Shown in pieces: positions 24,498-44,585 of a DNA stretch of 64,000 nt. A program made the position numbers and the translations under genes. The notes under the pieces were generated by a model. That model was not told the DNA's origin, did no database searches, and worked only from the letters and a program-made list of their open reading frames with translations. The stretch comes from Pedobacter puniceum (GTDB lineage: Bacteria; Bacteroidota; Bacteroidia; Sphingobacteriales; Sphingobacteriaceae), in assembly GCF_009674685.1 (NCBI RefSeq), contig NZ_WKJI01000001.1, positions 1,302,001-1,366,000 on the forward strand, written 5' to 3'. Position 1 is the first letter of the stretch. Each line of letters opens with the position of its first letter.

Positions 24498-25838
24498 TTA
24501 TTTTTTAGATACAAGGAAGACCTGATAACCCGCTTTCAGCATAACCTTTGGCGTTCTCACTTTCTTGGCGAAATAGCCCGAAATACCCTGTACTACGCCA
24601 CGGCTAAGGTCAGCCGCTACCTGCTGTCCGGCATTCTGCGTGAGCATTACGCTTGTTCCCCCGGTCTGGCTCATATTGCCCGCCATTTCGGTAAGGGCGT
24701 TCATTTCCGGCGAATACGGAACGTACAAGCCTTGCTGTCCGTCCAAATCGTAAATGGTAATATCTACCGGGATGATATTGCCCTCCAGTTCTACGGAGGT
24801 AACTTTTAATTGCAGCCTGCCATTCTGAAATTTAGCGTTAGCCGTTACAATCGTTCCTTTGGGGATGGTACGTTGCGGGGTTTTGGCAGGCTCTAACAAG
24901 CGTAAACGCACACCTGTTTCGCCAACTACCGTTTGGGCTTCGTGTACACAGGCTTTGATACTGTTTTTGGGCTGTACCACCTCTTCAGTAGAACCTGCGG
25001 TATAAAATCCCCTGTTTTTTGTTTGGCTCCAATCGGCTGCAAAGGCACTGTCCGACGGTTCACGGTACAAGGCTGATACAATGTTCTTTCTTGTTGGTGT
25101 GAACGATACAAATTGCTCTTTTTGGTTAGCACCCGCAGCCCCAGTAGTTGCACCGTTGGCAGGAGCAGCGTTTCCGGTATTGGCATTTTGCGGAAGATAC
25201 TTTGCAGCCATTTCATAGGATTTCTCCATTAGTTTGAGTTGGTCGTCAACGGTGGCCACAGGTGGCACATCTTTTTCCGACAACTTTGCTTTAAGTTCGT
25301 CCACTTGCTTACGGAGTTCTATTGTTTCGACATTGTCATTATTATAAAATGAACCCAGTGTGCTTCGTGCATTACGGTAGCTGTTCAATGCAGAATTACC
25401 GTTTCGTCCCGAATTTCTGCCACCACCGCCAAATCCGTTGCTTTCTTCATCTTCTTCAGGTAAACTTTCTTCATTGTCAGCAGATGCACTGTCTTCAGTA
25501 TTCCAATAGTCAGAAAGCGTGGTCAGTGCATTACGCTTTTCCTGTTCTTTGCGTTCGAGCATTTCCTGCTCATACGCTTTGCTTTTATCGTCGGGCATTC
25601 CTGCTCCGGTAGCCTGCGGCACGGCATCGTTCAGCCCAATATTTTCAACCGCCTTTTTATCTTTCGACGGTTTAAAGATGAGGTACATACAGCCGAGAAA
25701 TACCACGCCCATCAAAAGGAATATGATTGGTTTTTTGAGCTTATCCTTATTACTCTTCTTATTATCCGGCAGATTTGATGCTGCGTTTGGATCTTCCCCC
25801 TCAACGAGAAAGCTGACCCTTTTTTCATTTTCTTTCAT
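24498..25838 (-). CDS. traM: Conjugative transposon protein TraM
   Basis: 446 residues. One N-terminal membrane span (about 33-54, KKPIIFLLMGVVFLGCMYLIF), a long Gly/Asn/Ser/Glu-rich periplasmic linker (about 100-260) and a conserved C-terminal domain with KACVHEAQTVVGETGVRLRL, PKGTIVTANAKF, and VYDLDGQQGLYVP-like text (IYDLDGQQGLYVPYS). Related in role to VirB10, bridging inner and outer membranes. Its start overlaps the end of traL. Confidence 0.92.
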   Translation of the reverse strand: MKENEKRVSFLVEGEDPNAASNLPDNKKSNKDKLKKPIIFLLMGVVFLGCMYLIFKPSKDKKAVENIGLNDAVPQATGAGMPDDKSKAYEQEMLERKEQEKRNALTTLSDYWNTEDSASADNEESLPEEDEESNGFGGGGRNSGRNGNSALNSYRNARSTLGSFYNNDNVETIELRKQVDELKAKLSEKDVPPVATVDDQLKLMEKSYEMAAKYLPQNANTGNAAPANGATTGAAGANQKEQFVSFTPTRKNIVSALYREPSDSAFAADWSQTKNRGFYTAGSTEEVVQPKNSIKACVHEAQTVVGETGVRLRLLEPAKTPQRTIPKGTIVTANAKFQNGRLQLKVTSVELEGNIIPVDITIYDLDGQQGLYVPYSPEMNALTEMAGNMSQTGGTSVMLTQNAGQQVAADLSRGVVQGISGYFAKKVRTPKVMLKAGYQVFLVSKK

Positions 25839-26109
25839 AAATCTGATTTTTTAAAATTGTTGATACACTATCCTGCAACCTTGCAGGATTTTTACTTTTT
25901 AGAACAGGGTTCTCGATATGCTCAATGACCATATCATTACCAGGCTTTGAAGTGTCGTACAGCACTTTGCCAACAACCGCTACAGTAAGCAGCAGGTAAC
26001 CCACAAAGAAGTACAGCGTATATTTATGCTGTTTGCGTAAAGGCAATGCCCGCCAACGCTCATCTAGCTTGTCAAAGTACCTGTCCATATTTGCTCTTAA
26101 TTTTTTCAT
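25825..26109 (-). CDS. traL: TraL-like small membrane protein (DUF3989)
   Basis: 94 residues, basic N-terminus and one membrane span at about 28-48 (YTLYFFVGYLLLTVAVVGKVLY). Fits DUF3989/TraL by size, topology and position before traM, with which it overlaps by 14 bp. Confidence 0.8.
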   Translation of the reverse strand: MKKLRANMDRYFDKLDERWRALPLRKQHKYTLYFFVGYLLLTVAVVGKVLYDTSKPGNDMVIEHIENPVLKSKNPARLQDSVSTILKNQIYERK

Positions 26110-26127
26110 AGCCTTACTATTTCTGTG

Positions 26128-26556
26128 TTACAGCTTGAAACGCTTAGGACTTTTACCCGCCTGTTGCTTTGGCGCATCGTTGACCAGTGCGACCGCTTCC
26201 GTTAATTTAGGTGCGGACATTACGGACAAGTTTGCCAGTTCCGATTTTTTGAGCAGTTGCCCAAAGCCGTCTTTCTTGGTTACTTCCATACGGCTCAATG
26301 AGAATTTGCCATTCAGGTACTTTACCCACATATTGCATTCTACACGGGGCTTGTCATCGCCCGACCATTGCAGGTAGCCTGTCAGCAGTAAATCCTGCTT
26401 TGGCAAAGTGTCTGCACCTTTTTGGCAGCTTTCGAGGTATTCGCTGATGCTGTCTTTCAGCTTTCCGGCATACGCACCTTGCGTATGGAAATATCCGTTG
26501 TATCCTTTATCGGTAAGGATTTTTGTGAACGTGCTTAAATCTGATAATGCTTCCAT
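26128..26556 (-). CDS. Unknown protein between traK and traL
   Basis: 142 residues, soluble, not recognised. Text: YNGYFHTQGAYAGKLKD, LLLTGYLQWSGDDKPRVECNMWVKY and a Lys-rich tail ending SPKRFKL. It is read with the tra genes (11 bp after traK, 18 bp before traL), so it is probably part of the transfer operon of this ICE class, though CTnDOT lacks an obvious counterpart at this point. Confidence 0.7.
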   Translation of the reverse strand: MEALSDLSTFTKILTDKGYNGYFHTQGAYAGKLKDSISEYLESCQKGADTLPKQDLLLTGYLQWSGDDKPRVECNMWVKYLNGKFSLSRMEVTKKDGFGQLLKKSELANLSVMSAPKLTEAVALVNDAPKQQAGKSPKRFKL

Positions 26557-26567
26557 AAGATTGTTTT

Positions 26568-27191
26568 TTAGCGTTCGATAACCTCTATATCCTTATTTTC
26601 CACGACTGCAAATTTTTCAATATTGAAGCCCTGCGGATTGTTGTCGGAACGAACGGAGTTGACGAGATAGCAGGTAGTAATCAGGTTACGTCTGGTTACA
26701 TTGCTTGACCGGATAATAAATTGTTTGGCATAGGTGCGCACTGCATACGGGTAGTTGTCGAAATTGCACACGACACTATCCACCTCAATGCGTTGCTGCA
26801 CGTTCCCCGAAATGATACGGCTGTAATAGCCCTTTTCCGACAAGTCTTTGTAGTAATCAAAAGCACTTTTATCGGCAAGGTTAAATGCCCTGCTCATATT
26901 GCTTTCAATAGCGTTCTTGTCGGGCGCAAGCGTAAAGAACAGTTCGTGAAATCTCCTGACGTGTTCCCTTGCTTCAACCGGGCGGTTGATGCTCGCATCC
27001 TGCGACAAGGCAAGCATCAGGGATTTGCCGTTATCCAGTACATAGATTTTTTGGCGTTGTTCTTCTGCAAAGCGGTAGGAACGCCATACGGCGTAACCTA
27101 CCACGCTAATGCAGAGAACCGCAAACACAATGGCATATAATCTTATCTGCCTAAAGCTGTTTTCGATATTTCTTAGCGTTTTAAATTCCAT
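26568..27191 (-). CDS. traK: Conjugative transposon protein TraK
   Basis: 207 residues, one N-terminal membrane span (about 18-34, AIVFAVLCISVVGYAVW). The text ENSFRQIRLYAIVF, VLDNGKSLMLALSQDASINRPVEARE (shortened: LDNGKSLMLALSQD) and HVRRFHELFFTLAPD is typical of TraK. VirB8-like component. 19 bp after traJ. Confidence 0.93.
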   Translation of the reverse strand: MEFKTLRNIENSFRQIRLYAIVFAVLCISVVGYAVWRSYRFAEEQRQKIYVLDNGKSLMLALSQDASINRPVEAREHVRRFHELFFTLAPDKNAIESNMSRAFNLADKSAFDYYKDLSEKGYYSRIISGNVQQRIEVDSVVCNFDNYPYAVRTYAKQFIIRSSNVTRRNLITTCYLVNSVRSDNNPQGFNIEKFAVVENKDIEVIER

Positions 27192-27210
27192 TTTTTAGAA
27201 TGATTAATGT

Positions 27211-28206
27211 TTATTTATTCATCAGTTTACCGCCGATGTTTCCAACTGTTGAGCCTGCACCTGCTCCGGCGATGTTTCCGGCTTTCATTGCTGTAGAGTT
27301 TACATTGCGGGTAAAGTTTCCTGCGCCTCCGGCTTGGATTACCCAACCTGTTACTGTCGGGATAGTGAAGTACCCGATGATGCCGATAATCATAAAGATG
27401 ATGTACACGGTATTGCTCGTATCAGGTATATAGGTGGGGTCGGCAAGCATTGCTATATCCCGTTCTAAAATGAGGGATTGTATTCTTGCCAACATTGAGC
27501 TGAACAAATCCGAAACGGGAAGCCACAGGTAAACGCTGACGTACCTCGTGAGCCATTGCGTGAGCGTGGACTGAAAGCCATCCCATACGGAAATAGCAAA
27601 GGCTATTGGTCCGAGTATGGAGAGGACTATCAGGAAAAACGTCCGTATGGTATCAATGACCAATGCTGCCGCCTGAAAGAGTATTTCCAGTAGATTGCGA
27701 AACCAATCCTTTATGGCTTTCTCTATCTTGTAGGCTTGCCTGTCCATATACATACCCGCCATCGTGCCAATGTCGGAGGGCGACCAACCCAGTTCGTCCA
27801 GTTTCTTATCAAACTCTTCGTCTGATACCATATAGGCGGTTTCGGGGTTCCTTACCATTGCCTCGTATTCCAACTTGTCTTTCTGCTGTTGCAGCTTGTT
27901 CAGGTCAAGCACCTGGTCTTCGAGTATTTGGTGGGTTCCTACCACCACCGGGCTTAGTACCGCATTGATGGTTCCCAATACGATGGTCGGGAAGAACATA
28001 ATACAAAGCCCCAAAGCGAACGGGCGCAGCAAAGGGAACATATCAATAGGTTCGGCACGGCTTAAAGCCTGCCAAACCTTTAATGCCACATAGAACAATG
28101 CTCCCAATCCCGCCAAACCTTTAGCGACTGCCGCCATATCGCCTGCAAGCGGCATCATATCATGATAAAGCGACCGCAGGAGTTCGTGAAGATTATCCCA
28201 TTCCAT
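27211..28206 (-). CDS. traJ: Conjugative transposon protein TraJ
   Basis: 331 residues, multi-span inner-membrane protein comparable to VirB6. Hydrophobic segments at about 28-48, 70-90, 183-210 and 268-290, and a Gly/Ala-rich tail (AGAGAGSTVGNIGGK). Landmarks: IDMFPLLRPFALGLCIMFFP and GPIAFAISVWDGFQSTLTQW. The stop-start distance to traI is 3 bp. Confidence 0.93.
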   Translation of the reverse strand: MEWDNLHELLRSLYHDMMPLAGDMAAVAKGLAGLGALFYVALKVWQALSRAEPIDMFPLLRPFALGLCIMFFPTIVLGTINAVLSPVVVGTHQILEDQVLDLNKLQQQKDKLEYEAMVRNPETAYMVSDEEFDKKLDELGWSPSDIGTMAGMYMDRQAYKIEKAIKDWFRNLLEILFQAAALVIDTIRTFFLIVLSILGPIAFAISVWDGFQSTLTQWLTRYVSVYLWLPVSDLFSSMLARIQSLILERDIAMLADPTYIPDTSNTVYIIFMIIGIIGYFTIPTVTGWVIQAGGAGNFTRNVNSTAMKAGNIAGAGAGSTVGNIGGKLMNK

Positions 28207-28870: not shown

Positions 28871-31375
28871 CTATTGATTTGAATTGTCCCGCCTTTGCAT
28901 TGCGATATGCTTAATGGCGAGTTCCACATTGCCGTCCAGTTCAGCAGCAAGCTGCATCACTTCCATTTTCTCAGTTTCTTCGGTCGTGTAAGCGAGGTAT
29001 TCCTCCAAACTAACTTCGGTGGCATAGACTGCCGAGTGCGTACCACCTAAGCCAATCCAAACCTCTTTGTAAAGGCGGCTTGCATCGTTGTTCATATTGA
29101 TGGAAAGTACCTGCCCTTTCTCTTTGTCAGTAAGCCCCAACATCGCCTGTATGTCATCAAACTTGTTCATATACTTGCGTTGGTCAAGCAGGATTTTGCA
29201 GTCGGAGTTGTTGATGATACTTTCTTTCACAATGGGCGACTGGATAATATCATCGACCTCTTGCGTTACGACAATCGCTTCGCCGAAAAATTTGCGGACG
29301 GTTTTAAACAGGTACTTGATGTATTCCGCCATTCCCTCTTTGGCAATCGCTTTCCAGGCTTCTTCAATTAGGATGAGCTTGCGAATACCTTTCAATCGGC
29401 GCATCTTGTTGATGAACACCTCCATAATGATAATCGTGACTATGGGAAAGAGGATTTTGTGGTCTTTAATCGCATCAATTTCAAACACGATAAAGCGTTT
29501 GGAAAGCAGGTCTAACTGCTTGTTTGAGTTCAGCAGGTAATCGTATTCGCCACCCTTGTAATAGGGTTCGAGTACGTTCAGAAAGTTGGCAATGTCAAAG
29601 TCTTTTTCCCTTACCTGCTTTTCCTCCAATACCTTGCGGTAATCGCTCTTTACATACTCATAAAAACCGTTGAATGAGGGATAAACATCTTGGTGCTTGA
29701 TACGCTCGATATAACCGCTTACCGCATTGGAAAGGGCAACTTCTTCAGAACGGGTTGGCGGTTCATCATCACGTTTCCATAAAGTCAGTATCAAAGTCTT
29801 GATACTTTCCCTTTTCTCAATATCAAAGACGCCGTCATCAGTATAGAAAGGATTAAAGGCAATCGGGTTGTCTTCGGTGTAAGTGAAGTAAACGCCGTCT
29901 TCGCCTTTGGTCTTTCCTTTGATGAGTTCGCATAAGCCCTGATAAGAGTTACCCGTATCTACCAACAGCACGTGTGCGCCCTGCTCGTAATACTGCCGTA
30001 CCATATGGTTTGTGAAGAACGATTTACCACTGCCTGATGGCCCTAATATGAACTTGTTCCGGTTCGTGATGATACCCCGCTTCATAGGCAGGTCGGAAAT
30101 ATCCAGATGGATAGGTTTTCCGGTCAGGCGGTCAGCCATCTTGATACCGAACGGCGAGGGCGAATTGTGGTAGTTGGTTTCTTCCGTAAAGAAGCACAGC
30201 GCAGGCTCAATGAACGTGTAAAAACTTTCCTCACTGGGAAAGTCGCCTGCATTGCCCGGCATTCCTGCCCAGTACAAGGTAGCCACATCCGCAGTGTTGT
30301 GCCGGGGTTTACACTCCATCAGTGCCAACGCACTACCGCAATCGTTCTTTAGCTGTTTGAGTTCCGAAAGGTCTTCCGACCACGCCATAATGTTGAAGTG
30401 CGCACGTATAGAAGACAGCCCGAAGCTGCGCGCTTCGTTCAGGTACTTTTCTATCCACTCTTTGTTGATTTGGTTGGCACGGCTGTACCTTGCCAGTGAG
30501 TGCATATTACGGGCAGATTTCTCAAACTTTTGCAGGTTGTCTTCACTGTTATCCAAAAACAAATACTGGTTGTAGATGTGGTTGCAGCTCAACAGCAAAC
30601 CCACGGGTGCGGCGAATGACAAACGGCAGTCGCTACGGTCGGTGGATAGCTTTTCAAAACGGGTATCTGCCGATACGGTTCCGGGCAGGTCGTCTGTGTC
30701 TGACAAGGTGTGCAGGCTTAACCTTTTGTTGCCAATGCGTACTTCTTCGTTTCCAAGTGCGATGTCCTGCATTGGTGTTCCGACTCCCCTCGATAGCGTG
30801 AGGTACTGCTCCAGTAATCCCTGTGTATCTTCCGTACCGATGATTTCATCTTCGGTCAGGCATTTCAGGCTTACAAAACCGCTATCGTTCACGATACGCT
30901 CAAATTGGGCGACCGCCTCCATAAAGCGATGTATCGTTTCCTTGTTCCTGATTTCCTTTGGTATCAGTTTGCCTTTGCAAAGCGAACTGAAGTTGCTTTG
31001 CATCCGCATTCTTTCCTTAGTGGTCTTCGTCAAGAACAGGTAACAATAATGGTTCAGGAACGGTCGCTCATTGAAATGGCGTTGATAAGACTTTGATAAA
31101 AAACTTTGGTCTTCTATTGACAGATCGGGCGCATAGCTTTCCTTGATGTACCAATCCTGTTTGTGAATGACCGTAAAATCAGGCAGGGTTTTAATCGCTT
31201 TGTGCCAGGCGGAATGTATCACTTCATATTCCGCAGAAGCTACCGTGAACAGTTCCGGCAGGCGCACTTCAAAGCAGGCGGTAATGTCCGCATCTTTGGA
31301 AAGGATGCAGTTGTTCTCTACTGCCAACAACGGAAATTTGTTTTCCAGTGTGGTGGTCTTTGCTACATTTCTCAT
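28871..31375 (-). CDS. traG: TraG conjugation ATPase (VirB4 type)
   Basis: 834-residue cytoplasmic motor for channel assembly. Walker A GPSGSGKS at about 445-452 (Lys451), Walker B LILIEEAWKA at about 665-675, then the conserved EAIVVTQEVDDIIQSPIVKE. Full length for the family. The ATG overlaps the traF stop (ATGA), so translation is coupled. VirB4-like, not the coupling protein, which is encoded at 45961-47946. Confidence 0.95.
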   Translation of the reverse strand: MRNVAKTTTLENKFPLLAVENNCILSKDADITACFEVRLPELFTVASAEYEVIHSAWHKAIKTLPDFTVIHKQDWYIKESYAPDLSIEDQSFLSKSYQRHFNERPFLNHYCYLFLTKTTKERMRMQSNFSSLCKGKLIPKEIRNKETIHRFMEAVAQFERIVNDSGFVSLKCLTEDEIIGTEDTQGLLEQYLTLSRGVGTPMQDIALGNEEVRIGNKRLSLHTLSDTDDLPGTVSADTRFEKLSTDRSDCRLSFAAPVGLLLSCNHIYNQYLFLDNSEDNLQKFEKSARNMHSLARYSRANQINKEWIEKYLNEARSFGLSSIRAHFNIMAWSEDLSELKQLKNDCGSALALMECKPRHNTADVATLYWAGMPGNAGDFPSEESFYTFIEPALCFFTEETNYHNSPSPFGIKMADRLTGKPIHLDISDLPMKRGIITNRNKFILGPSGSGKSFFTNHMVRQYYEQGAHVLLVDTGNSYQGLCELIKGKTKGEDGVYFTYTEDNPIAFNPFYTDDGVFDIEKRESIKTLILTLWKRDDEPPTRSEEVALSNAVSGYIERIKHQDVYPSFNGFYEYVKSDYRKVLEEKQVREKDFDIANFLNVLEPYYKGGEYDYLLNSNKQLDLLSKRFIVFEIDAIKDHKILFPIVTIIIMEVFINKMRRLKGIRKLILIEEAWKAIAKEGMAEYIKYLFKTVRKFFGEAIVVTQEVDDIIQSPIVKESIINNSDCKILLDQRKYMNKFDDIQAMLGLTDKEKGQVLSINMNNDASRLYKEVWIGLGGTHSAVYATEVSLEEYLAYTTEETEKMEVMQLAAELDGNVELAIKHIAMQRRDNSNQ

Positions 31376-32203: not shown

Positions 32204-33346
32204 ATGATTGATTTTGAAATAGCAGAAATTGAAGCTACTAATCAATTTGCCCAATTACTAAACCCAAGGGTAGATTTTGCAACACCATACGTATTCTATT
32301 ACGATGAAACCAATAATATCAAAACATTCTATGTAAGAGAAAATGATTTCAATTATACGTTTACAGCTAATTTTGTTTTGGGAGGAGTTCTACATGAAGG
32401 AGCAGTACCGGATGTACAGCCATTGATAGATAGTTTTAAATTACAGAAGACAGCCAAGGAAGTAAAATTTAAACATATCGCATTTGGAGATTTTCTTGAT
32501 TGTCTAAAATCCCAGAAGCTAAACCTCTTCTTTCGCTTTTTAAAAGAAAGCGATCTTTATGTCCATTATTCAAGTTTAAATATTTTGTACTGGTCTGTAG
32601 TTGATATTGTAGATTCTGCGATAATGAATTCTGACGCAGCTATGCAATTAAGACCTGGATTTGACAATCAAATGAAGAATGACCTTTACAAACTCTGTCG
32701 TCTTGAAATAGATGCCGTCGTTCAACTTTTTTATGCTTTCGAATATCCTAATGTTAAACCTGAGAAAATTGGTGATTTCATAGAAGCATTGAGTAATCTT
32801 TTCGAAGAATATCTTCCGTTACAAGAATTTCATTTTGGGTTGGAATCTTTACGGCAGATATTGAAAGAGTCTAAAAAGAAAGGTGAGCTAGCTTTTGTTA
32901 TGGATGAAAAAGATCACGTACTGTTAGCAGATTTGACACACTTTTATCTCAGACCTATATATACCTTCAAGAATTCAACTCATATTTTTGACAACGAGGA
33001 TTCTATCCGAGAAGCTTTGAACGATTACAGAATGCTAGATAAAGGTGTAGAGTTTAAAAACTATTCTTTTGTTGATTCTCAGGGCAGCCAATTGACACAA
33101 CTATCTGATATTTTTATTGGTTTCATGGGTAAATATACCCAATACAGGAATACGCATACTATGGAAGAAATTAAAGCGGATATCGACTCTTTCTCAGCCT
33201 TACAGTTAGTAAATATGAAGTTATTTATTGATATCATTAATAAATCAGATCAAAAAAATCCTGCCTTTCTACACGCAACAGATAGTTATGAAGAGGTAAT
33301 GAAATTTGGGGAGCTATGCGAAATTATTGCAGGAAAACAACCTTAA
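32204..33346 (+). CDS. DUF3800-like protein (RNase-H-fold family)
   Basis: 380 residues, soluble. The early motif VFYYDETNNIKTF (about 30-42) corresponds to the YIDESG-type start of DUF3800, and the late SQGSQLTQLSDIFIGF (about 294-309) to its D-x-QLADL motif, acidic positions of an RNase-H-like fold. DUF3800 proteins are frequent in mobile elements and defence islands; activity unknown. It points away from traE and faces the Ubl operon, ending in a shared bidirectional terminator. AT-rich compared with tra genes. Confidence 0.7.
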   Translation: MIDFEIAEIEATNQFAQLLNPRVDFATPYVFYYDETNNIKTFYVRENDFNYTFTANFVLGGVLHEGAVPDVQPLIDSFKLQKTAKEVKFKHIAFGDFLDCLKSQKLNLFFRFLKESDLYVHYSSLNILYWSVVDIVDSAIMNSDAAMQLRPGFDNQMKNDLYKLCRLEIDAVVQLFYAFEYPNVKPEKIGDFIEALSNLFEEYLPLQEFHFGLESLRQILKESKKKGELAFVMDEKDHVLLADLTHFYLRPIYTFKNSTHIFDNEDSIREALNDYRMLDKGVEFKNYSFVDSQGSQLTQLSDIFIGFMGKYTQYRNTHTMEEIKADIDSFSALQLVNMKLFIDIINKSDQKNPAFLHATDSYEEVMKFGELCEIIAGKQP

Positions 33347-33427: not shown

Positions 33428-33841
33428 CTACAATCGGAAAAATTTGGAGATTTTCTGCCAAATAGAAGATTTTTGACTTTCTTGAGGTTCTTCTTTTGGA
33501 ATATCCGGCATGTCAAAATACTCCGTCTTACGTTCTAAGTCATTTTCTCTACCTAGACGGATTTCCTTTTCTGTCCAATGACCAGCAAACTCAACGTTAT
33601 TGTTTCTTATCCAATAATGAGACTGACATTCAAAATTCCAATTGCCTATAGACGGATAAAGCGTAATTGATTTGCCATTAAATGTCAACCTCCAATCAGT
33701 CGGAGACAATGGAGTTACCACTTCGTTACCGCAACCACATACACATTTATGTATTGCAGTGCAGTATTCGATTGAGACGTATAAAATACCTTCTTCAACC
33801 TTCTCGGGAATGAACTCAACGAACTTATGCTGTAACGACAT
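33428..33841 (-). CDS. DUF6527 protein, third gene of ubiquitin-like operon
   Basis: 137 residues from ATG at 33841 (MSLQHKFVEFIPEKVEEG); ATG at 33847 is an equally possible start. The frame is open to 33907, but further extension would read into the ThiF gene. C27, H31, C33, C35 and C37 form a compact Cys/His cluster (HKCVCGCGNEV), followed by PLSPTDWRL and SIGNWNFECQSHYWI, the DUF6527 signature, probably metal binding. It overlaps the end of the ThiF gene. DUF6527 genes commonly accompany multiubiquitin and E2-E1 genes. Role unknown. Confidence 0.82.
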   Translation of the reverse strand: MSLQHKFVEFIPEKVEEGILYVSIEYCTAIHKCVCGCGNEVVTPLSPTDWRLTFNGKSITLYPSIGNWNFECQSHYWIRNNNVEFAGHWTEKEIRLGRENDLERKTEYFDMPDIPKEEPQESQKSSIWQKISKFFRL

Positions 33842-34982
33842 CTTCATTAAAAATTTTAGATGTGCTAATAGCATATGAGCTATGATGCTCATTTTCCAAA
33901 TCAACATAAATTCCAGATAGCTTCTTCCATTTCAGGATAGCAAAAATTGCATTCAATGCATTCAATTCCGCAATTTGAATATTAGTAGCATATTCATTAT
34001 TATCGGAATCTTCTGAAAAAATACGAAGAGGTAAATGGTCATTTTTGTCACGGGTGGCAGAAGTAACTCTTACAGCACCCGTAAGCTTGTCATCAACGAC
34101 ATTCACACCCAAACCTACATCGGAAAACGGAATACCTGCGCTAGCCAAATAATCTGTTACCATCTTCCTGACAGCATTTTTATCAACACATATAAATACA
34201 TAATCCATTTTATCTAACTCTAATAGATTCTCTTTCTTCACATAGTAGTCATGGACATAAATGTATTTGTGCATGTTAGAATACAACTTTTGATAATATG
34301 CAGCCTTTCTCGGATTTTCATCAAGGTCACTCATTGATGCAGCACCAGGCGAACGGAATGCATTGTGTTGGTCAAAGCTATCCCCATCAAAAAGATGGAT
34401 TTCCTTTACCGGTGTTTTAGCCACCATATCCAAAATATATGCTCCAGTTCCTCCTAAACCAACAATTGCTATTTTCTGATTTTCCAATTTCGAATTAATA
34501 GCTTCTATGTTAGCGCGGCTTGAATTAGTATCAATGTATTGGAATACTGTTTCATTAGAGCTGTCTGCTATCAGCTTAAAAGTCTTTTCCGTAACTGACG
34601 GATACAAATATTTGGCGGGAGCGGAAATGATATCTACATACCTCTTGACCTTTTCGTAATAGTTAGGATATCCACCAGTAGGCTTATTAGAAAATGATCT
34701 ATTTACGGTAATCTGATTGTTTAATACAGAATTACTGTTGCCATGTTGAATAGCGGTAATAAAGTTGCCGTCGATTTCACAGGGATTATCTCCTATAAAA
34801 AAAATAACATGGTTTTGAATATCATGTAATGTAGTTACCAATATACCGTATTGTAGATTTTTGTTTTGATCAACAAAGGGTATATGATGGATAAGTAAAT
34901 ATCCACCACGTACCTCGATCTCATAACCTTCGTCTCTTAGACGTTTAAGGTCGGGACTATGATTTATCAGTTGCTGTGACAT
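33825..34982 (-). CDS. E2-E1 fusion: ThiF-family adenylyltransferase with N-terminal E2-like domain
   Basis: 385 residues. N-terminal part (about 1-130) resembles DUF6791/E2-like domains: HVIFFIGDNPCEIDG places C68 as the candidate E2 cysteine. The C-terminal part is an E1/ThiF domain with nucleotide loop GLGGTG (175-180), acidic LFDGD around 197-201 and R210 in NAFRSPG. It would activate the C-terminus of a ubiquitin-like partner and pass it on. It overlaps the multiubiquitin gene by 26 bp and the DUF6527 gene at its end, so all three are co-translated. No JAB-type deubiquitinase gene is visible here. Confidence 0.83.
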   Translation of the reverse strand: MSQQLINHSPDLKRLRDEGYEIEVRGGYLLIHHIPFVDQNKNLQYGILVTTLHDIQNHVIFFIGDNPCEIDGNFITAIQHGNSNSVLNNQITVNRSFSNKPTGGYPNYYEKVKRYVDIISAPAKYLYPSVTEKTFKLIADSSNETVFQYIDTNSSRANIEAINSKLENQKIAIVGLGGTGAYILDMVAKTPVKEIHLFDGDSFDQHNAFRSPGAASMSDLDENPRKAAYYQKLYSNMHKYIYVHDYYVKKENLLELDKMDYVFICVDKNAVRKMVTDYLASAGIPFSDVGLGVNVVDDKLTGAVRVTSATRDKNDHLPLRIFSEDSDNNEYATNIQIAELNALNAIFAILKWKKLSGIYVDLENEHHSSYAISTSKIFNEDVVTA

Positions 34983-35658
34983 CGAAGATCATTTTATTTT
35001 TGACACGAACAACTGAACCTTTAACCATAGTGCCTTCTGGTTTAGGTTCCCAACCTCTACTGTAAGTAACTGTATAACCTTTGTTTGGATTATTATCATA
35101 TGATCCAAAGGCTAAAACAACCAATTGCTCAAAAGAAATGTTTATTTCTTTCCATATGTGCGGACGTGCATTGACAATGATGGTTACTTCAGTTGGTCTT
35201 GGCTTAGAAAAGAATCTCTCTTTACCCGGACGAGCTAAATCAACTACTTCATCATCGAATATTTGATCGTCTTGCCAGCCTTCCTTGATGTCAAGGAAGA
35301 TATCATCTTCCGCAGGTATGTTGCCCAGCTCTCTGATTTGAACACCTCTGATATATTGCTTATACCAAGTAAAAGGCTTGTCGTTAATGAAAAACTGGAG
35401 TTTTTTCTTTACAAAGAAATATTCAGTTTCTGGCCGAGCCAGATTTACCTGCTTTTCATTTTCAATAAGCTCATCCTGATAAGGTTTACTAATTGATAAA
35501 AACAACTCGGTATCTAAAGGTATCCCAGCAAGTTGTTTTAATTCTGCCCCTGTTTTGTATTGGTCAAAAGTCTCATATTCTTTGCCTTCTATTACAAATT
35601 TTAGGGGTATTTTTGGGCTATGGGAATGCAAATCCCCTTGATGATTATCTAACTTCAT
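34957..35658 (-). CDS. Multiubiquitin protein with three beta-grasp repeats
   Basis: 233 residues made of three ubiquitin-like units at about 17-83, 86-151 and 156-227. The first two share the pattern K-x-x-F-x-I-x-x-K-x-[YF]..., then G-x-[EQ]-[LI]-[KR]-x-L, then a LARP end (VNLARPETEYFF and VDLARPGKERFF). The third lacks that end and closes with RVKNKMIFDV. Proteins of this type (multiubiquitin, PF14452) are encoded with E1/E2-like partners in bacterial ubiquitin-like operons. First gene of the operon. Confidence 0.88.
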   Translation of the reverse strand: MKLDNHQGDLHSHSPKIPLKFVIEGKEYETFDQYKTGAELKQLAGIPLDTELFLSISKPYQDELIENEKQVNLARPETEYFFVKKKLQFFINDKPFTWYKQYIRGVQIRELGNIPAEDDIFLDIKEGWQDDQIFDDEVVDLARPGKERFFSKPRPTEVTIIVNARPHIWKEINISFEQLVVLAFGSYDNNPNKGYTVTYSRGWEPKPEGTMVKGSVVRVKNKMIFDVTATDKS

Positions 35659-35975: not shown

Positions 35976-36221
35976 TTAAAATTTTGTGTCTGTTATTGAT
36001 TTCGGATCGTTTCCGGGTTTAACAGTATCGCTATCTCTAATAGGTCCACCATTCGGGCGATGTATTCTAACTTCTCCTCCGCCATTTTTTGATGAAAATT
36101 GTTTTGCAAGTTGTTCAGCTTGCTTTTGAGTACTGACAATTGCTGATGCTTTCTTGCCGCCTTCCTTTTGGACGTTCCACCCGTCTTGTCCTTTTTTCTG
36201 TGTTACATGATAATTTGCCAC
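35976..36221 (-). CDS. DUF2188 small protein
   Basis: 81 residues from GTG at 36221 (VANYHVTQKKGQDGWNVQKE); the longer ATG frame up to 36338 would run into the protease gene and adds unrelated sequence. The pattern YHV...GW.V...ASA...T..A...A, ending in VRIHRPNGGPIRDSDT, is that of DUF2188, a short beta-alpha domain of unknown function. It follows the protease by 16 bp and is the third gene of the AAA-protease operon. Confidence 0.78.
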   Translation of the reverse strand: MANYHVTQKKGQDGWNVQKEGGKKASAIVSTQKQAEQLAKQFSSKNGGGEVRIHRPNGGPIRDSDTVKPGNDPKSITDTKF

Positions 36222-36237
36222 AATTATAAATATTAAA

Positions 36238-38718
36238 TTAAACTCTTGGTACAATTCGAGCTGCAGTTTTGATATCAACGGCTTGGACTCCAAGCGACTG
36301 TAGCATTTGTCGCATATCATTAAATACTGGTTTCTCACTATCAGGATCAGAAATTGTTAGTATTGCTGTAAACGGTACACCTGCAGCTGGTAGAGTTACA
36401 CCATCTCTTGATAAGTACTCTACATCTAGTTTCCATTCTGTCGATGGTCCAACTCCTCGGGGGAAAGTTTTTTCATAAACTTTCACTGGACTCCATTTGA
36501 AAGAATGTTCAATCTGATCTTTCTCGTATAAACTTCCATCACCATCTTCAGGCGTGTAAATTGCATTCAACCTTCCTTTATAGTTACCATTATTTTGCAG
36601 TTGTCTTAAAGCTGCGTCGATATTTATTCTGACAAACTCAGAACCAAATCTGTAATCAAACCTTGGCGTACTTACAATGGTAAGTTTTGCATGCCCAAAG
36701 CATTTACCATCCCTTACTAAACTTGAAGGCCACGTAAATTTAAAACTCATCTTATGTCCACTTATAGCTCGGTTTGCAAATACTAATGTTATTGCAGACG
36801 AACTTCCGTTCAAAATATCTTCAGAACCGTCTGGCATACCAAATCCAACCAAGTGTTTGGAGACGTTTCTCAAATTTTTGTCGTTAAGGGACTCTGGTAA
36901 TACAGCATGATGGATTCCCAGAGCGATTAGTGTTTCTCTTGAAACAATACCTTCAATTGAATGATCAAGACTTGCTAAAGTCTTTGCTACATTAGGAGCA
37001 GCATAGCTAGTTCCGCAACCATCGACAATGTTACTCGTAGGGTCTAGAGATAGAAGACCATGTCCTAAAATTGGATGACTAGTCCCGGATCCACCGATAT
37101 GAGCAACATCAGGTTTAAGGCCTACTCGTAGTCCAGGTCCTCGACAGCTGTAATTACTTAGAGCGTAAGGAACAACACCGTCAAGATGTGGAGGATTTAA
37201 AGCTGAAACACTGATATTACGACAGCTTTCAGCTGGTTTTTTAATAGCATCATTTCTCGAAGAAGCTAATATTTTTAATGCATCAAAATGATCCGAAGGC
37301 CATTCTTTTCTAATATCTCTCGGATGGGTATTACCCGCCGAAATAACAAAAACGACATCATTTTCTTCCGCAATCTTGTCCAAAATTTGTGCAGGAATGC
37401 TATAACCTGTAGTTGATGCATGTTCTTCTATATTCAAGCTGAAATTAAATATTCGAACTCCAGTTCTAGCTTTTAATTCCTGAACAGCAGTTTCAAGTTC
37501 ATTAAAAAATTCTAAAGGTTTTGAATAGTAGGAACTATATCTGTCAACACGAGGCAATATATCAAGATCTACAATTTTACAACCATCAACCTCCCTGCAA
37601 ATAGCCTTTCCGTTTAATTGTTGACCAAAGATTGCTAATCCAGCTATAAAAGTACCGTGATTTTCGTCTTTATCCGTGCTGCTAATTAATCCCCAACGAT
37701 CTTCTATCCAGTCACCATAAACGTCCGAAACACCACCGTCTACAACGCATATTTTCGGATATGAGCCTTTGTGATCAGGAGCAAGAACAGTAAAGTTTTT
37801 ACCTTTGACCTGAGATTTGACAGTTGAGCTTTGTGTAATGATGGGAGGAAGAGTAACTTTTTTTACCAATGGATGATTTCCTAAATATTCTAACAATTGG
37901 TTATGTCTCTCCAAATCGAGGTCGATAGATTTTTTCTCTCCTGATTTGCCTGCTGTTGACGATGAATAAAGCTGTATTACCGGAGACGAATCTGTTTTCT
38001 CTAATTTTATACCAAACACAACAGATGAACCCTGACCGGTAGTAATTCTTGATACAAATAAGCCTGTGCCCAAAACGGTTAACCCGCCAAAAAAGCTATC
38101 AAACAAATCGAATTTGTATTTGCTTAGTAGATCCCAATCTTGTCTCGCTGGAGGAGCTTCAAATAATTCTACCATATACGAACCGCCAGTTTGAGGATTA
38201 GATAGCCATTTTACGGCTTCTTTGACAGAAAAATTCCTTTTGTCACTTGCGGTGTATGGACTAATTTCTTCAATTGCACCAACTTCACTTCTTAATCTTG
38301 AAGGATTAGGTTCATTTTTTCCATTCTTTTCTTTATATCTTGTTTCAGGCTCGGCCTGTCCAACTTTAGTATTTATTTTATCAATACTTTCAGGAGTCAG
38401 TTCGACAAATAATTCTCCCAAATCCCCAGCTCCAATTATAGGAGCAACATCCCTTTTGAAAACTTGGGAAGTTGGACGATGGCTTTTTGCTAATGCAGTT
38501 TGCTTTAATGTAACTTTCGCATAAGAAACCTTGGCGAAACTATTTACCAACTGCATACTCTTTATCTCACTAAGCTGATTTTGAATGTTATCCCTATGCT
38601 CAATGAATTCATTATCATTTCCAGCAAAAAAGTCTTTAGAACCACCGCCACCATTATTTTCTAATGCTTCAATAAAAGCATCGCTATTTAATACTATTTG
38701 AACAGGACTATTTGCCAT
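36238..38718 (-). CDS. Subtilisin-like (S8) serine protease
   Basis: 826 residues. The catalytic triad is visible: D327 in CVVDGGVSD, H354 in ENHGTFIAG and S571 in CGTSYAAPN, with VFVISAGNTHPRD (oxyanion Asn region) between. No signal peptide or prodomain is obvious, so the enzyme is probably cytoplasmic. The N-terminal 300 residues and the C-terminal 200 (beta-rich, with DYRFGSEFVRINIDAALR) are extra domains that may hold substrate. It begins 3 bp after the AAA+ ATPase gene. This pairing of an intracellular subtilase with an AAA+ ATPase suggests an ATPase-controlled proteolytic switch. Confidence 0.88.
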   Translation of the reverse strand: MANSPVQIVLNSDAFIEALENNGGGGSKDFFAGNDNEFIEHRDNIQNQLSEIKSMQLVNSFAKVSYAKVTLKQTALAKSHRPTSQVFKRDVAPIIGAGDLGELFVELTPESIDKINTKVGQAEPETRYKEKNGKNEPNPSRLRSEVGAIEEISPYTASDKRNFSVKEAVKWLSNPQTGGSYMVELFEAPPARQDWDLLSKYKFDLFDSFFGGLTVLGTGLFVSRITTGQGSSVVFGIKLEKTDSSPVIQLYSSSTAGKSGEKKSIDLDLERHNQLLEYLGNHPLVKKVTLPPIITQSSTVKSQVKGKNFTVLAPDHKGSYPKICVVDGGVSDVYGDWIEDRWGLISSTDKDENHGTFIAGLAIFGQQLNGKAICREVDGCKIVDLDILPRVDRYSSYYSKPLEFFNELETAVQELKARTGVRIFNFSLNIEEHASTTGYSIPAQILDKIAEENDVVFVISAGNTHPRDIRKEWPSDHFDALKILASSRNDAIKKPAESCRNISVSALNPPHLDGVVPYALSNYSCRGPGLRVGLKPDVAHIGGSGTSHPILGHGLLSLDPTSNIVDGCGTSYAAPNVAKTLASLDHSIEGIVSRETLIALGIHHAVLPESLNDKNLRNVSKHLVGFGMPDGSEDILNGSSSAITLVFANRAISGHKMSFKFTWPSSLVRDGKCFGHAKLTIVSTPRFDYRFGSEFVRINIDAALRQLQNNGNYKGRLNAIYTPEDGDGSLYEKDQIEHSFKWSPVKVYEKTFPRGVGPSTEWKLDVEYLSRDGVTLPAAGVPFTAILTISDPDSEKPVFNDMRQMLQSLGVQAVDIKTAARIVPRV

Positions 38719-38721
38719 AAC

Positions 38722-39909
38722 TTATATTTTTTCAGAATCTTTAAATTTTGATAACTGTTTACTCAAAGTTGACGGAGTCATTCCGAACAATGATGCTAGA
38801 TCTTTCTGTTTAAAAGAGTAAACCTTATCGTTTAATAACATATTGATAAAATCTTCATCACTGTGAACCATAACATTTCTCTTTTTTGCGTCCACCCTTC
38901 CAGAGTTAAGTACAGCAAATTGCTTCATTACTTCCACTATATTGCTTTCCCTTTCTAAAACAAAAGCTCTTTTTAGCCATTTAGAAAGCATTTCTGCATC
39001 AGCACCTGATGAGCCATCTAAGCACCATGCAAAAAACTTAATTTCACTTTCGTTAAATTCTAAAGGCGTAATAAAAGTCTTAAGTAATTGAATCATTACC
39101 TCAGGGGAAGGTTTGGGAATTTCAACCTGTATATCAAACCTTCTCCAAATAGCAGGATCAAGAAGACTTTCATGGTTAGTTACACCAATGGTAAAACCTT
39201 TTTCATGACGTGAATCCAAACTTTGCAACAAGGTATTCACCACTCTTTTTACTTCACCAACCTCCTGCGGATCGTTACGGAGTTTAGCAATTGCATCAAA
39301 CTCATCAAGAAGTAGGATGCATTTATACCTATTAGCAAAAGTGAATAGATTGCCAATATTTCGAGATGTAGTTCCTAGATACGAAGACATAAGCCCTTCC
39401 AACCTTGCCAGTACTACAGGTAATCCAATTTGTTTTGCAATCCATTTTGCTAAATGTGTCTTACCAGTTCCTGGCGCACCGTAAATTAAGCAGGAGCTAG
39501 CTGGAGTAGCATTAATTTCTAAAAGTTGATCGAATTTGCTCCATTCATTTACAATTGAGTGAATAGCAAGCTGGATGTTATCATCAAACATTGGAGCTTT
39601 CTCTGGTAGATCATCAGGAAAAAAAATCTCTGCTAATGGTGTTGATGTCTCCTTATCTACAGGAATTGATGTCTTAGGAGTTATCTCTTCACCTTTTAAA
39701 ACCACGAAAGATCTTTGGATTTTACTTGGGGACATCTCAAGCGAAGATTCAGAGGCAGTCAGTAAAGCCTCCAATGACTTAGCCTCTTTAGTAAATCCAT
39801 CTTTTTCCAAGCTCTCTTTTAGTCTTCTAATTTGATGAGTGACAGCTTCATTCGGCATTGCCAATGCGGACCTGCTTAAAGCTTGTACTATACTGAAATA
39901 TTTGAGCAT
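38722..39909 (-). CDS. AAA+ ATPase with C-terminal helix-turn-helix, partner of the S8 protease
   Basis: 395 residues from ATG at 39909; the frame is open to 39960, but that start would lie upstream of the promoter box. Walker A GAPGTGKT at 144-151, Walker B CILLLDEFDAI at about 200-210, arginine-finger region LDPAIWRRFD. The C-terminus (about 370-395, FKQKDLASLFGMTPSTLSKQ) reads as a helix-turn-helix, so the protein may also bind DNA. First gene of the AAA-S8-DUF2188 operon. Just upstream are four TTTCC repeats at 20-bp spacing, a plausible binding array for its own HTH. Confidence 0.85.
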   Translation of the reverse strand: MLKYFSIVQALSRSALAMPNEAVTHQIRRLKESLEKDGFTKEAKSLEALLTASESSLEMSPSKIQRSFVVLKGEEITPKTSIPVDKETSTPLAEIFFPDDLPEKAPMFDDNIQLAIHSIVNEWSKFDQLLEINATPASSCLIYGAPGTGKTHLAKWIAKQIGLPVVLARLEGLMSSYLGTTSRNIGNLFTFANRYKCILLLDEFDAIAKLRNDPQEVGEVKRVVNTLLQSLDSRHEKGFTIGVTNHESLLDPAIWRRFDIQVEIPKPSPEVMIQLLKTFITPLEFNESEIKFFAWCLDGSSGADAEMLSKWLKRAFVLERESNIVEVMKQFAVLNSGRVDAKKRNVMVHSDEDFINMLLNDKVYSFKQKDLASLFGMTPSTLSKQLSKFKDSEKI

Positions 39910-39937
39910 TTGCTTATTGTTTCTTAATTTATAAATG

Positions 39938-39945
39938 CAAATATA
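39938..39945 (-). promoter_or_regulatory. -7 promoter box of the AAA-S8 operon
   Basis: TATATTTG on the minus strand fits TAnnTTTG exactly and lies 28 bp before the ATG at 39909. A CTTG 17 bp upstream could be the -33 element. It supports the 39909 start. Confidence 0.6.
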
Positions 39946-39950
39946 GTAAT

Positions 39951-40030
39951 AAATTTCCAAAACAAGATTTTAATTTCCCTTTTTTGATATAAATTTCCAA
40001 AAACAGACTTTAGTTTCCTTTTTTTCTTTA
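39951..40030. repeat. Tandem 40-bp repeat carrying four TTTCC iterons at 20-bp spacing
   Basis: Units 39951-39990 and 39991-40030 match at 31 of 40 positions. TTTCC starts at 39954, 39974, 39994 and 40014, exactly 20 bp apart, i.e. on the same face of the helix. The array overlaps the -33 region of the AAA-S8 promoter, so it is probably an operator. Confidence 0.75.
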
Positions 40031-43176: not shown

Positions 43177-44457
43177 ATGATAGCAAAGATTGGCAGAAGC
43201 GGGAATTTATACGGTGCATTGGCGTACAATCAGCTCAAAGTAGAGAATGAAAACGGGAAAATTCTGTTCGCAAATAAGATAATCGAAACGCCAACTGGAG
43301 CATATACTGTTGCACAATTAGCACAATCTTTTGCACCTTACCTGATTGCCAACCGCAATACGGAAAAGCATACGTTGCATATTTCGCTCAATCCCGACCC
43401 GAAAGATAAGGTTAGCGATGACAGGTTTCGGCAAATGGCGGAAGAATATATGCGGGAAATGGGCTACGGCGAACAGCCTTTTGTGGTATTCAAACATACC
43501 GATATCGACCGCAGCCATATACACATTGTATCGGTTTGCGTGGACGAGCAGGGCAAAAAGATTTCGGACAAATTCGAGAAAATGCGGTCTATGAATGTGT
43601 GCCGTGAACTGGAAAGACAACACGGCTTGATACCCGCAACCGATAAAGAACACAAGCAGAACGACAAGATTTTCCGTCCGGTAGATTATCGGGCAGGCGA
43701 TGTGAAAAGCCAAATCGCTTCGGTTGTCCGCCACCTACCGAATTATTATAAGTTTCAGACTTTGGGCGAATACAATGCCTTGCTTTCCCTGTTTAATGTT
43801 ACCACCGAAAAAGTGGAGGGCGAATTGCAGGGAAAAATGCGGCAAGGCTTATTATATATTCCTTTAAACGAGAAAGGCGAAAGAGCCGGGCATCCGTTCA
43901 AGGCTTCGTTGTTTGGTAAAAATGCAGGGCTTCCGGCTTTGGAACTGCATTTTGCAAAATGCAAAGAGGATTTAAAAGACCACCCAAGTAAGCAGACCCT
44001 AAAAGCTGCAATTTCTATTGCTCTGAAATCCACAAATGATGAGCAGGCTTTTAAAAAGCAGTTGAGTGAACAGGGCATTAATGTAGTGGTCCGCCGGAAC
44101 GATACAGGTCGTATTTATGGTATCACTTTCATAGACCACAATTCAAAGGCGGTTTGGAACGGTTCACGCTTAGCAAAGGAACTTTCTGCCAATACCTTTA
44201 ATGATTATTGGAACAATAATATCAAACCGGAGATTAAAGAACCTGTCGTACAACTTCCAAAAACATCCACATCAAATGATGCAGATCTTCCTGCGGAAGA
44301 ACCTCATCATTTGTTCGACTTCCTGAATACTACTGAAAAACACGAAGACGGTTTGATTGAGGCATTTGGCGGTTTGTTACCCGAAGCACAGGGCGATGAT
44401 TACGAGGAACAGGATTTTGCTAACAAAATGAAGAAGAAAAAAAAAAGAAGACTGTAA
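43177..44457 (+). CDS. mobB: Relaxase / mobilisation nuclease MobB
   Basis: 426 residues. Nicks oriT and pilots the strand. The three-His metal motif is clear: H107-TDIDRS-H114-I-H116 in HTDIDRSHIHIV. Y12 or Y17 near the N-terminus (GNLYGALAYNQLKV) is the likely nucleophile. HTLHISLNPDP precedes the His motif as in MOBP-type relaxases of Bacteroidota. The C-terminus is Glu-rich and ends in a run of Lys. The gene is followed by a strong terminator. Confidence 0.93.
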   Translation: MIAKIGRSGNLYGALAYNQLKVENENGKILFANKIIETPTGAYTVAQLAQSFAPYLIANRNTEKHTLHISLNPDPKDKVSDDRFRQMAEEYMREMGYGEQPFVVFKHTDIDRSHIHIVSVCVDEQGKKISDKFEKMRSMNVCRELERQHGLIPATDKEHKQNDKIFRPVDYRAGDVKSQIASVVRHLPNYYKFQTLGEYNALLSLFNVTTEKVEGELQGKMRQGLLYIPLNEKGERAGHPFKASLFGKNAGLPALELHFAKCKEDLKDHPSKQTLKAAISIALKSTNDEQAFKKQLSEQGINVVVRRNDTGRIYGITFIDHNSKAVWNGSRLAKELSANTFNDYWNNNIKPEIKEPVVQLPKTSTSNDADLPAEEPHHLFDFLNTTEKHEDGLIEAFGGLLPEAQGDDYEEQDFANKMKKKKKRRL

Positions 44458-44462
44458 GAGGT

Positions 44463-44490
44463 CAGATTTTGGAATTAAAAATCTGTTTTT
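44463..44490 (+). terminator. Intrinsic terminator of the mob operon
   Basis: Perfect 8-bp stem CAGATTTT/AAAATCTG, 7-nt loop, then TTTTT, 5 bp after the relaxase stop. Confidence 0.9.
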
Positions 44491-44541
44491 AAAAAGATTT
44501 ATTGAGCTGTCACTTTATAATTCTGAAAGAATTTGAGTTGT

Positions 44542-44581: not shown

Positions 44582-44585
44582 TGCT

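What the first reader, a model, noticed from the sequence alone, without database searches (positions are those of the whole stretch)
33428..35658. Ubiquitin-like conjugation operon: multiubiquitin, E2-E1 fusion, DUF6527
Three overlapping genes encode a triple beta-grasp protein, a fusion with candidate E2 Cys68 and an E1 loop, and a Cys/His-cluster protein. There is no deubiquitinase. The compact layout differs from four-gene bacterial ubiquitin-like antiphage operons, and the role of DUF6527 is open.
Basis: partly seen in the sequence, partly recalled or inferred. Interest (0 to 1): 0.65.

Follow-up and report, generated by a model that had tools for sequence, protein, structure and literature searches.

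The report
Ubiquitin-like tagging operon, relative of Bub
A mobile three-gene bacterial operon encodes a ubiquitin-like tag, a fused activating-and-conjugating enzyme and a small probable metal-binding protein; the gene set has been in print since 2006, but it seems to work without the usual cysteine chemistry or tag-trimming protease.

Summary
The three genes are real and at the stated place: a triple-Ubl protein (PF14452), a DUF6791-ThiF fusion and DUF6527. This gene set is Iyer, Burroughs and Aravind's 2006 operon type 6e in its 'domain X instead of JAB' form. It is widespread: 109 plasmid records match at least 80% of the fusion, and all 65 DUF6791 loci gathered carry DUF6527.

New here: predicted alone, DUF6791 resembles E2 (UBC) enzymes, closest to BubB of the characterised Bub pathway. 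The E1 half is Bub-like: no conserved cysteine, and a near-invariant Tyr331 aligns with BubCD Tyr370. A Citrobacter Bub operon also ends in DUF6527. So the fusion reads as a BubB-BubD enzyme without the BubC protease.

The Ubl ends in Ser in 62 of 63 operons (the exception is a broken gene); Bub instead appears to expose a Gly from a BubA-BubB precursor. The proposed catalytic Cys68 is not universal (52 of 57); H58 and S98 are (57 of 57). So E2-E1 fusion is supported, Cys68 catalysis doubtful. Conjugation and a defence role remain inferred. IetAS, an AAA ATPase plus subtilisin pair, often sits upstream.

The parts
34957..35658 (-). Triple ubiquitin-like (Multi_ubiq) protein, 233 aa, BubA-like, ending in an encoded Ser
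   Evidence: PF14452 three stretches, E 1e-31; PDB 9cd2 matches residues 23-233, 2e-22, and also ends TDKS
34960..34962 (-). Codon of the C-terminal Ser233 of the Ubl
   Evidence: Ser in 62 of 63 operons; all four TCN codons used in 42 aligned overlaps while E1 residue 8 varies
34957..34982 (-). 26-nt Ubl/E2-E1 gene overlap, conserved across phyla
   Evidence: annotated overlap 41 nt in Sinorhizobium and Novosphingobium
33825..34982 (-). DUF6791-ThiF fusion, 385 aa: E2-fold domain fused to a Bub-like E1
   Evidence: PF20590 and PF00899; models and fold searches
34605..34982 (-). DUF6791 domain, residues 1-126: predicted E2/UBC-like fold closest to BubB
   Evidence: pLDDT 86.0, pTM 0.81; VIA Z 8.7 to 9eae_C BubB, 115 aligned, rmsd 3.4, next row Z 5.7; Foldseek alone not significant
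34809..34811 (-). Codon of invariant H58
   Evidence: 57 of 57 distinct fusions
34779..34781 (-).
   Evidence: C in 52 of 57; at least three changes on the tree
34689..34691 (-). Codon of invariant S98; in a low-confidence profile alignment it faces the Ser of the BubB RWSRH motif
   Evidence: 57 of 57; hhalign
33867..34529 (-). E1 (ThiF) domain, residues 152-372
   Evidence: VIA Z 22.6 to BubCD, tied with ThiF 22.1; best profile match in PDB BubCD 1.7e-11
33990..33992 (-). Codon of Y331, aligned with Tyr370 of BubCD
   Evidence: Y in 55 of 57, in the other two one residue away
33428..33841 (-). DUF6527 protein, probable start 33841, 137 aa, Cys/His cluster
   Evidence: PF20137 1.2e-25; C33, C35, C37, C72, H75 conserved; present in 65 of 65 DUF6791 loci
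36238..38718 (-). IetS, S8 subtilase; associated neighbour, membership not shown
   Evidence: PADLOC PDLC02199, E 0; recurs upstream of the operon
38722..39960 (-). IetA, AAA ATPase; associated neighbour, membership not shown
   Evidence: PADLOC PDLC02195 4.9e-162
35976..36229 (-). DUF2188 small protein between IetS and the Ubl gene; start uncertain
   Evidence: PF09954 2e-18; a homologue lies upstream of the operon in 13 of 65 loci and downstream in one

Best explanation
A mobile ubiquitin-like conjugation module related to Bub, with a simpler, protease-free design. The Ubl is translated with its working C-terminus already exposed: an encoded Ser instead of a Gly uncovered by a JAB protease. 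The E1 half of the fusion adenylates that Ser carboxylate. The E2-fold DUF6791 half, fused in cis and corresponding to BubB, then passes the activated Ubl to a target. Chemistry is probably Bub-like and independent of Cys68, with Y331 of the E1 and H58/S98 of the E2 fold as the candidate residues. DUF6527, a probable metal-binding protein that many Bub-type operons also carry, most likely selects or presents the target (E3-like adaptor). Shown by computation: families, predicted fold, conservation, C-terminus, absence of a Prok-JAB match. Inferred: adenylation, transfer, the acceptor, DUF6527's role, and a role in phage or stress defence.
For: E2 fold: DUF6791 alone matches BubB at Z 8.7 over 115 of 128 residues, three units above the next rows, which by title are mostly E2, UEV, Cap2 and Atg3 chains. 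E1: BubCD is the best PDB sequence match for single sequence (1.2e-6) and profile (1.7e-11); Y331 aligns with BubCD Y370 in two MAFFT modes, and the title of PDB 9eav names a Y370F mutant. No invariant Cys in 27 aligned fusions; C265 is C in 41 of 57. DUF6527 is the last gene of a Citrobacter operon whose Ubl-E2 chain matches the crystallised Citrobacter BubA and BubB, and is in 65 of 65 DUF6791 loci. C-terminal Ser in 62 of 63; TCA 25, TCG 6, TCT 8, TCC 3 while E1 residue 8 varies H/R/L/P, so selection acts on the Ubl. No Prok-JAB match in the genome. An HTH gene with an M78 (ImmA/IrrE) gene, paired or fused, lies upstream in at least ten loci, and CapH+CapP or CapW regulators are reported for 219 of 544 Bub operons (PMC13373217, passages).
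Against: No activity is shown for this subtype. Foldseek alone found no significant fold match for DUF6791 (best E 0.61), VIA only re-ranks Foldseek's list, and no significant PDB sequence match exists. hhalign of DUF6791 against the BubB family is weak (probability 3.5%, P 0.012; probability 1.6%, score 18.0 against a maximum of 17.5 in 60 column shuffles). By structure the E1 ties with ThiF. A non-Gly C-terminus is unlike the Gly of Citrobacter BubA. DUF6527 was not found in 4 of 9 loci classed as JAB-type, and it occurs in genomes without a Multi_ubiq match, so it is not a strict Bub partner. Bub itself has not been shown to protect against phage (PMC13373217).
Confidence: 0.57

Rival explanations
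1. One reading: a thioester E2-E1 fusion in which Cys68 accepts the Ubl, in the style of CBASS Cap2.
For: C68 is present in 52 of 57 distinct fusions, and H58-x9-C68 repeats the canonical E2 spacing between the HPN His and the Cys (spacing recalled). Cap2 is among the structural matches (Z 5.6).
Against: Five otherwise intact homologues have Y, H or L there, with at least three changes on the tree (long branches make it unsure). In the model C68 lies 5 residues after the fourth strand and 40 before the following long helix, whereas S98 lies 10 before it. The E1 half has no invariant Cys to pass a thioester.
Confidence: 0.2
2. Sulfur-carrier or small-molecule chemistry: the E1 activates the Ubl C-terminus for sulfur transfer or nucleotide attachment (ThiF or MccB style), with no protein conjugation.
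For: ThiF ties with BubCD by structure and MccB is close; MccB also acts on a non-Gly C-terminus (recalled).
Against: A fused E2-fold domain, DUF6527 found also in Bub-type operons, tandem Ubls, and no sulfur-transfer or export genes seen among the annotated neighbours of the DUF6791 regions read.
Confidence: 0.08
3. The E2-fold domain is a non-catalytic holder (UEV/RWD-like); the E1 adenylate reacts directly with targets brought by DUF6527.
For: C68 is dispensable; UEV domains are among the structural matches; Iyer called the type 6e E2 inactive.
Against: H58, G64, P67, G72, S98 and Y115 are invariant in 57 of 57, which suggests more than a scaffold.
Confidence: 0.15

Closest known systems
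Operon type 6e of Iyer, Burroughs and Aravind 2006 (PMC1779556), superscript-b form: polyUbl, E1 with 'domain X' in place of JAB, metal-binding protein Y
   Same: Same gene set; the prototype Ubl protein (Mesorhizobium mlr6139) has three tandem Ubls.
   Different: They left domain X unassigned and speculated about a JAB-like role; here it models as an E2 fold. Their Y signature is C-x3-C-x35-38-H-x2-C, while here it is C-x3-C-x34-C-x2-H.
Bub (bacterial ubiquitination-like), Citrobacter BubA, BubB, BubCD (PDB 9ea4, 9ea8, 9eae, 9eav; Ye et al. 2026, paper not held)
   Same: Multi-Ubl; E1 with the aligned Tyr; E2 fold closest to BubB; DUF6527 as the last gene in the Citrobacter operon read; CapH/CapP-like regulators in relatives (likeness inferred from HTH and M78 domains).
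   Different: No JAB; E2 is DUF6791 (not Prok-E2_E PF14462) and is fused to the E1, not to the Ubl; C-terminus Ser, not Gly229 of a BubA-BubB chain.
CBASS Cap2 and 6A-MBL E2-E1 proteins
   Same: E2-like domain N-terminal to the E1 in one chain; Cap2 is a structural match.
   Different: Different E2 family. The best stretches of the PADLOC E1-E2 models lie within residues 136-281, i.e. the linker and E1 half.
Bil (BilABCD) antiphage operon
   Same: Ubl, E1 and E2 in one operon (PMC11354881, passages).
   Different: Bil has separate E1 and E2 genes and a JAB; here E2 and E1 are fused and there is no JAB.

Membership tests
Operon type 6e, JAB-less (superscript b) form | One to three tandem Ubl domains in one protein | tested here: met
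   PF14452 three stretches; Ubl proteins of relatives run from 83 to 256 aa, i.e. about one to three domains
Operon type 6e, JAB-less (superscript b) form | E1 with an N-terminal non-JAB domain | tested here: met
   PF20590 plus ThiF; no Prok-JAB match in the genome
Operon type 6e, JAB-less (superscript b) form | Metal-binding protein Y with C-x3-C-x35-38-H-x2-C | tested here: inconclusive
   C33-x3-C37-x34-C72-x2-H75 here; the Synechocystis copy has both orders, 'HCQCH'
Bub | E1 with Tyr at the position of BubCD Tyr370 and no Cys before it in the crossover region | tested here: met
   that Tyr370 matters is suggested only by a PDB title
Bub | BubB E2 of family Prok-E2_E (PF14462) | tested here: not met
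   Fold matches BubB, but the Pfam family is DUF6791, with no PF14462 match at E up to 1; none in the genome either (whose controls were silent)
Bub | BubC JAB protease | tested here: not met
   none in the operon
Bub | Ubl C-terminal Gly within a BubA-BubB chain | tested here: not met
   Ser before a stop codon, against G229/E230 in Citrobacter; that cleavage happens there is inferred from the PDB constructs
Bub | DUF6527 gene in the operon | tested here: inconclusive
   Present here and in Citrobacter, but found in only 5 of 9 loci classed as JAB-type; whether published Bub definitions require it was not readable
E2 (UBC) fold | Helix, four-strand meander, then the active-site loop and a helix | tested here: met
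   predicted topology; Z 8.7 to BubB; Foldseek alone not significant
Catalytic Cys E2 | Invariant active-site Cys | tested here: not met
   C68 in 52 of 57
Antiphage defence system | Protection against phage | not testable with these tools
   Context only: IetAS and PDC-S51 neighbours

The most novel reading that the evidence does not exclude
A thiol-free, protease-free ubiquitin-like pathway: a Ser-terminated poly-Ubl is attached to proteins by an E2 fold that uses an invariant Ser/His in place of Cys, and tagged proteins are handed to the adjacent IetA-IetS AAA ATPase-subtilisin pair for destruction, a bacterial parallel to ubiquitin plus proteasome that travels on conjugative elements.
Probability: 0.08. 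Interest if true: 0.92.

Novelty: new member of a known kind. Interest (0 to 1): 0.5.

Why it matters
It gives an unassigned domain (DUF6791, 'domain X' of 2006) a testable identity as the E2 of a common plasmid- and ICE-borne system. It removes Cys68 as the obvious catalytic residue and names replacements (H58, S98, Y331). It also points to a natural Ubl pathway in which a stop codon, not a protease, defines the tag's end, with an invariant Ser instead of Gly. If conjugation is shown, it would test directly how little machinery ubiquitin-like tagging needs, and whether Cys thioesters are dispensable. The recurring IetAS neighbour makes a link between tagging and AAA-protease action testable.

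Tried and rejected
Cys68 as an invariant nucleophile: held in 33 of 34 rows (L014 has a gap there) but failed in the wider set. Sequence search of PDB with DUF6791 and DUF6527 profiles: one insignificant hit each. The whole-model fold search said nothing about the N-domain, so it was predicted alone. Viral structure library: nothing significant for DUF6791. hhalign of DUF6791 to the BubB family: weak; only a permissive setting reached S98, and the global mode failed.

Limits of the counts. In one search the Ubl tails of L075-L081 were found with a filter demanding a final Ser, so that list is biased; one search repeated it with a profile that leaves out the last 12 residues. The 'JAB-type' column includes L047, a cut DUF6791-type contig, leaving five true rows. 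I class L051 and L066-L073 as JAB-type from layout and reading; Pfam confirmed the JAB only in L073 (L069 weakly, under the cut-off), the others were not scanned. Of these nine, L066, L067, L071 and L072 gave no DUF6527 in the stretch fetched. The 65 loci contain near-copies and leave out the second records of the window and of L032; 57 distinct full-length fusions remain after dropping L014 (94 aa). The 42 overlaps are hand-chosen rows with near-copies. Context counts are lower bounds: many loci hold under 4 kb, the window itself was not in that search, and (L011; L065) show M78-type genes that it missed. 'Bacteroidota' for the 296 genomes is inferred from the window's nearest relatives; the tool names no phylum.

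The Bub papers (Ye 2026, Gong 2025) could not be read: whether they treat the DUF6791 form is unknown, and my searches for DUF6527, DUF6791 and related terms do not show that it is absent from print.
Full report
WHAT IS THERE. The three genes lie on the minus strand of a genome that is Bacteroidota by its nearest relatives (window = G000:C1:1302001-1366000). Pfam gives Multi_ubiq (three stretches), DUF6791 plus ThiF, and DUF6527; NCBIfam calls the fusion PRK06153.1-4, 'hypothetical protein'. Around them are conjugative-transposon genes (TraM, TraJ, DUF4138, relaxase, T4SS coupling protein; I read the 834-aa protein at 28871-31375 as a conjugation ATPase but did not scan it) and defence cargo: IetS and IetA upstream, a PDC-S51 (DUF3800) gene downstream and a DUF2188 gene next to the Ubl.

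HOW COMMON. tblastn of the fusion finds 127 of 72,556 plasmid records; 109 cover at least 80% of it, and some of the rest match only its E1 half. The rows and regions read span Bacteroidota, three proteobacterial classes, Cyanobacteria, Bacillota and Actinomycetota. Of 296 genomes of the window's phylum, 6 carry DUF6791, 14 DUF6527 and 13 Multi_ubiq; all seven DUF6791 loci carry the other two genes beside them. Of 398 genomes drawn from the phylum of the Methylophilus locus L032 (handle G296, itself counted), 8 carry DUF6791. In all 65 DUF6791 loci gathered, DUF6527 is present, and 63 hold a Ubl reading frame; in the other two it is cut by the contig end.

KNOWN KIND. Iyer and colleagues (PMC1779556; section 14 and passages read) described this in 2006 as operon type 6e: a polyUbl, an E1 usually fused to JAB, an E2/RWD-like protein and a metal-binding protein. 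In a subset the JAB is replaced by an unassigned 'domain X'. They suggested that X might act like JAB and that the metal protein might recognise targets. The studied relative is Bub. I could not read the Bub papers and know them from PDB entries and from passages of PMC13373217 and PMC12687455. [quoted passage not shown]

THE FUSION IS E2-E1. The full model is confident over much of both domains, with a loose linker (mean pLDDT 78.7). Its E1 part matches BubCD (Z 22.6, rmsd 3.0, 215 aligned), tied with ThiF (22.1). By sequence BubCD is best, for a single query and for a profile. DUF6791 alone (pLDDT 86.0, pTM 0.81) matches BubB best: Z 8.7, rmsd 3.4, 115 of 128 residues, 12% identity. The second row is at Z 5.7, and the listed rows are, as far as their titles tell, E2s, UEVs, Cap2, Atg3 and UFC1, with one Knl1/Nsl1 entry. 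The tool warns that Z under 8 may mean only a common arrangement; only the BubB row is above that. Foldseek's own scores for the same model are not significant (best 0.61, a human E2), so the fold rests on the aligner's margin and on topology: helix, four-strand meander, loop region, long helix.

CYS68 IS NOT THE ANSWER. Among closer relatives C68 is kept in every row that covers it (33 of 34). In 57 distinct full-length fusions it is C in 52 and Y, H, H, H, L in Cupriavidus, Sulfitobacter, Sinorhizobium, Novosphingobium and Rhodococcus. Those operons keep the Ubl, its final Ser, and DUF6527. The five need three changes on the tree, which well-supported branches force; long branches make this less firm. 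H58, G64, P67, G72, S98 and Y115 are present in 57 of 57. No Cys is invariant in 27 aligned fusions (C265 is C in 41 of 57). Y331 (55 of 57, and one residue away in the other two) aligns with Tyr370 of BubCD. A permissive profile alignment puts S98 opposite the Ser of BubB's RWSRH; its score is 18.0 against at most 17.5 in 60 column shuffles and its probability 1.6%, so this is only a lead.

THE TAG ENDS IN SER. In 62 of 63 operons the Ubl ends in Ser, usually preceded by K, R or Q; the exception, L014, is broken. The Ubl and fusion genes overlap by 26 nt in nearly all aligned cases (annotated 41 nt in two), so a constraint from the other frame had to be excluded. In 42 aligned overlaps the last codon is TCA 25, TCG 6, TCT 8, TCC 3, while the fusion's residue 8 is H 25, R 6, L 8, P 3. 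The Ser is kept and the other frame drifts. The solved homologue 9cd2 also ends TDKS. In Citrobacter, BubA and BubB form one chain; PDB BubA constructs end at G229 and one BubB construct starts at residue 230. So Bub appears to need its JAB to expose a Gly, while here a stop codon exposes a Ser. No Prok-JAB match exists in the whole genome.

DUF6527. It follows the E1 gene in the Citrobacter operon (Prok-JAB confirmed) and in Synechocystis, and was found in 5 of 9 loci that I class as JAB-type, so it is shared with Bub-type operons but not required there; it also occurs in genomes without a Multi_ubiq match. C33, C35, C37, C72, S74, H75 and Y76 are kept in nearly all of 58 distinct copies from DUF6791 loci. 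No relative was found in PDB. Metal binding and an adaptor role are inferences, first proposed in 2006.

NEIGHBOURS. IetS lies by 17 of 65 DUF6791 loci and an M78 (ImmA/IrrE) gene by 18, never both (lower bounds, window not counted). Two IetAS types were confirmed by PADLOC upstream of the operon (PDLC02199 in L016 and the window, PDLC02201 in L002, L018, L022); in L021 an IetS lies on the other strand. In the 296 genomes only two IetS matches (model PDLC02197) are below 1e-100, and both lie directly upstream of this operon. Those two share ICE flanks on both sides; L033 shares the flanks but has M78 instead, L002 shares one flank, and L018 and L022 show neither. In a Hymenobacter plasmid IetAS precedes a different E1/E2 system, 6A-MBL. 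Against a strict link, IetAS has no E1 gene beside it in three other plasmids read. A shared defence hotspot explains this as well as a functional link does.

VERDICT. A real, widespread operon of a known predicted kind, best read as a protease-free cousin of Bub. 

Noticed in passing
36238-39960 and L002, L018, L022, L082, L088: IetAS (AAA ATPase plus subtilisin) of different types recurs directly upstream of the operon; in Hymenobacter (L088) it precedes the 6A-MBL conjugation system instead.
   Followed up: partly
L011, L013, L026, L029, L030, L033, L059-L064: HTH and/or M78 (ImmA/IrrE) genes, often as a divergent CapH/CapP-like pair (likeness inferred), lie upstream of the operon; no locus had both M78 and IetS.
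   Followed up: partly
35976-36229; L061, L057, L060, L065: A small DUF2188, DUF1508 or DUF3892 gene sits upstream of the Ubl gene in several loci.
   Followed up: partly
32204-33346: PDC-S51/DUF3800 candidate defence gene, convergent with the operon (PADLOC 1.1e-138).
   Followed up: no
23511-28206 and 43177-47946: CTnDOT-like conjugation genes (TraM, TraJ, DUF4138), a relaxase and a coupling protein, so the operon is probably cargo of a conjugative element.
   Followed up: partly
L014; L065:2650-3060: Broken copies: in L014 all three genes are interrupted or cut short; the Streptomyces Ubl gene is split between two frames and not annotated.
   Followed up: no
L023 and L024: Contigs of equal length with the same match are filed under Pontibacter and Amaricoccus, which suggests cross-contamination between assemblies.
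   Followed up: no
33428-33841 and homologues: DUF6527 copies end in a variable linker plus an aromatic, basic tail that looks amphipathic to the eye (not measured); His31 is Phe or Leu in the five JAB-type copies.
   Followed up: partly
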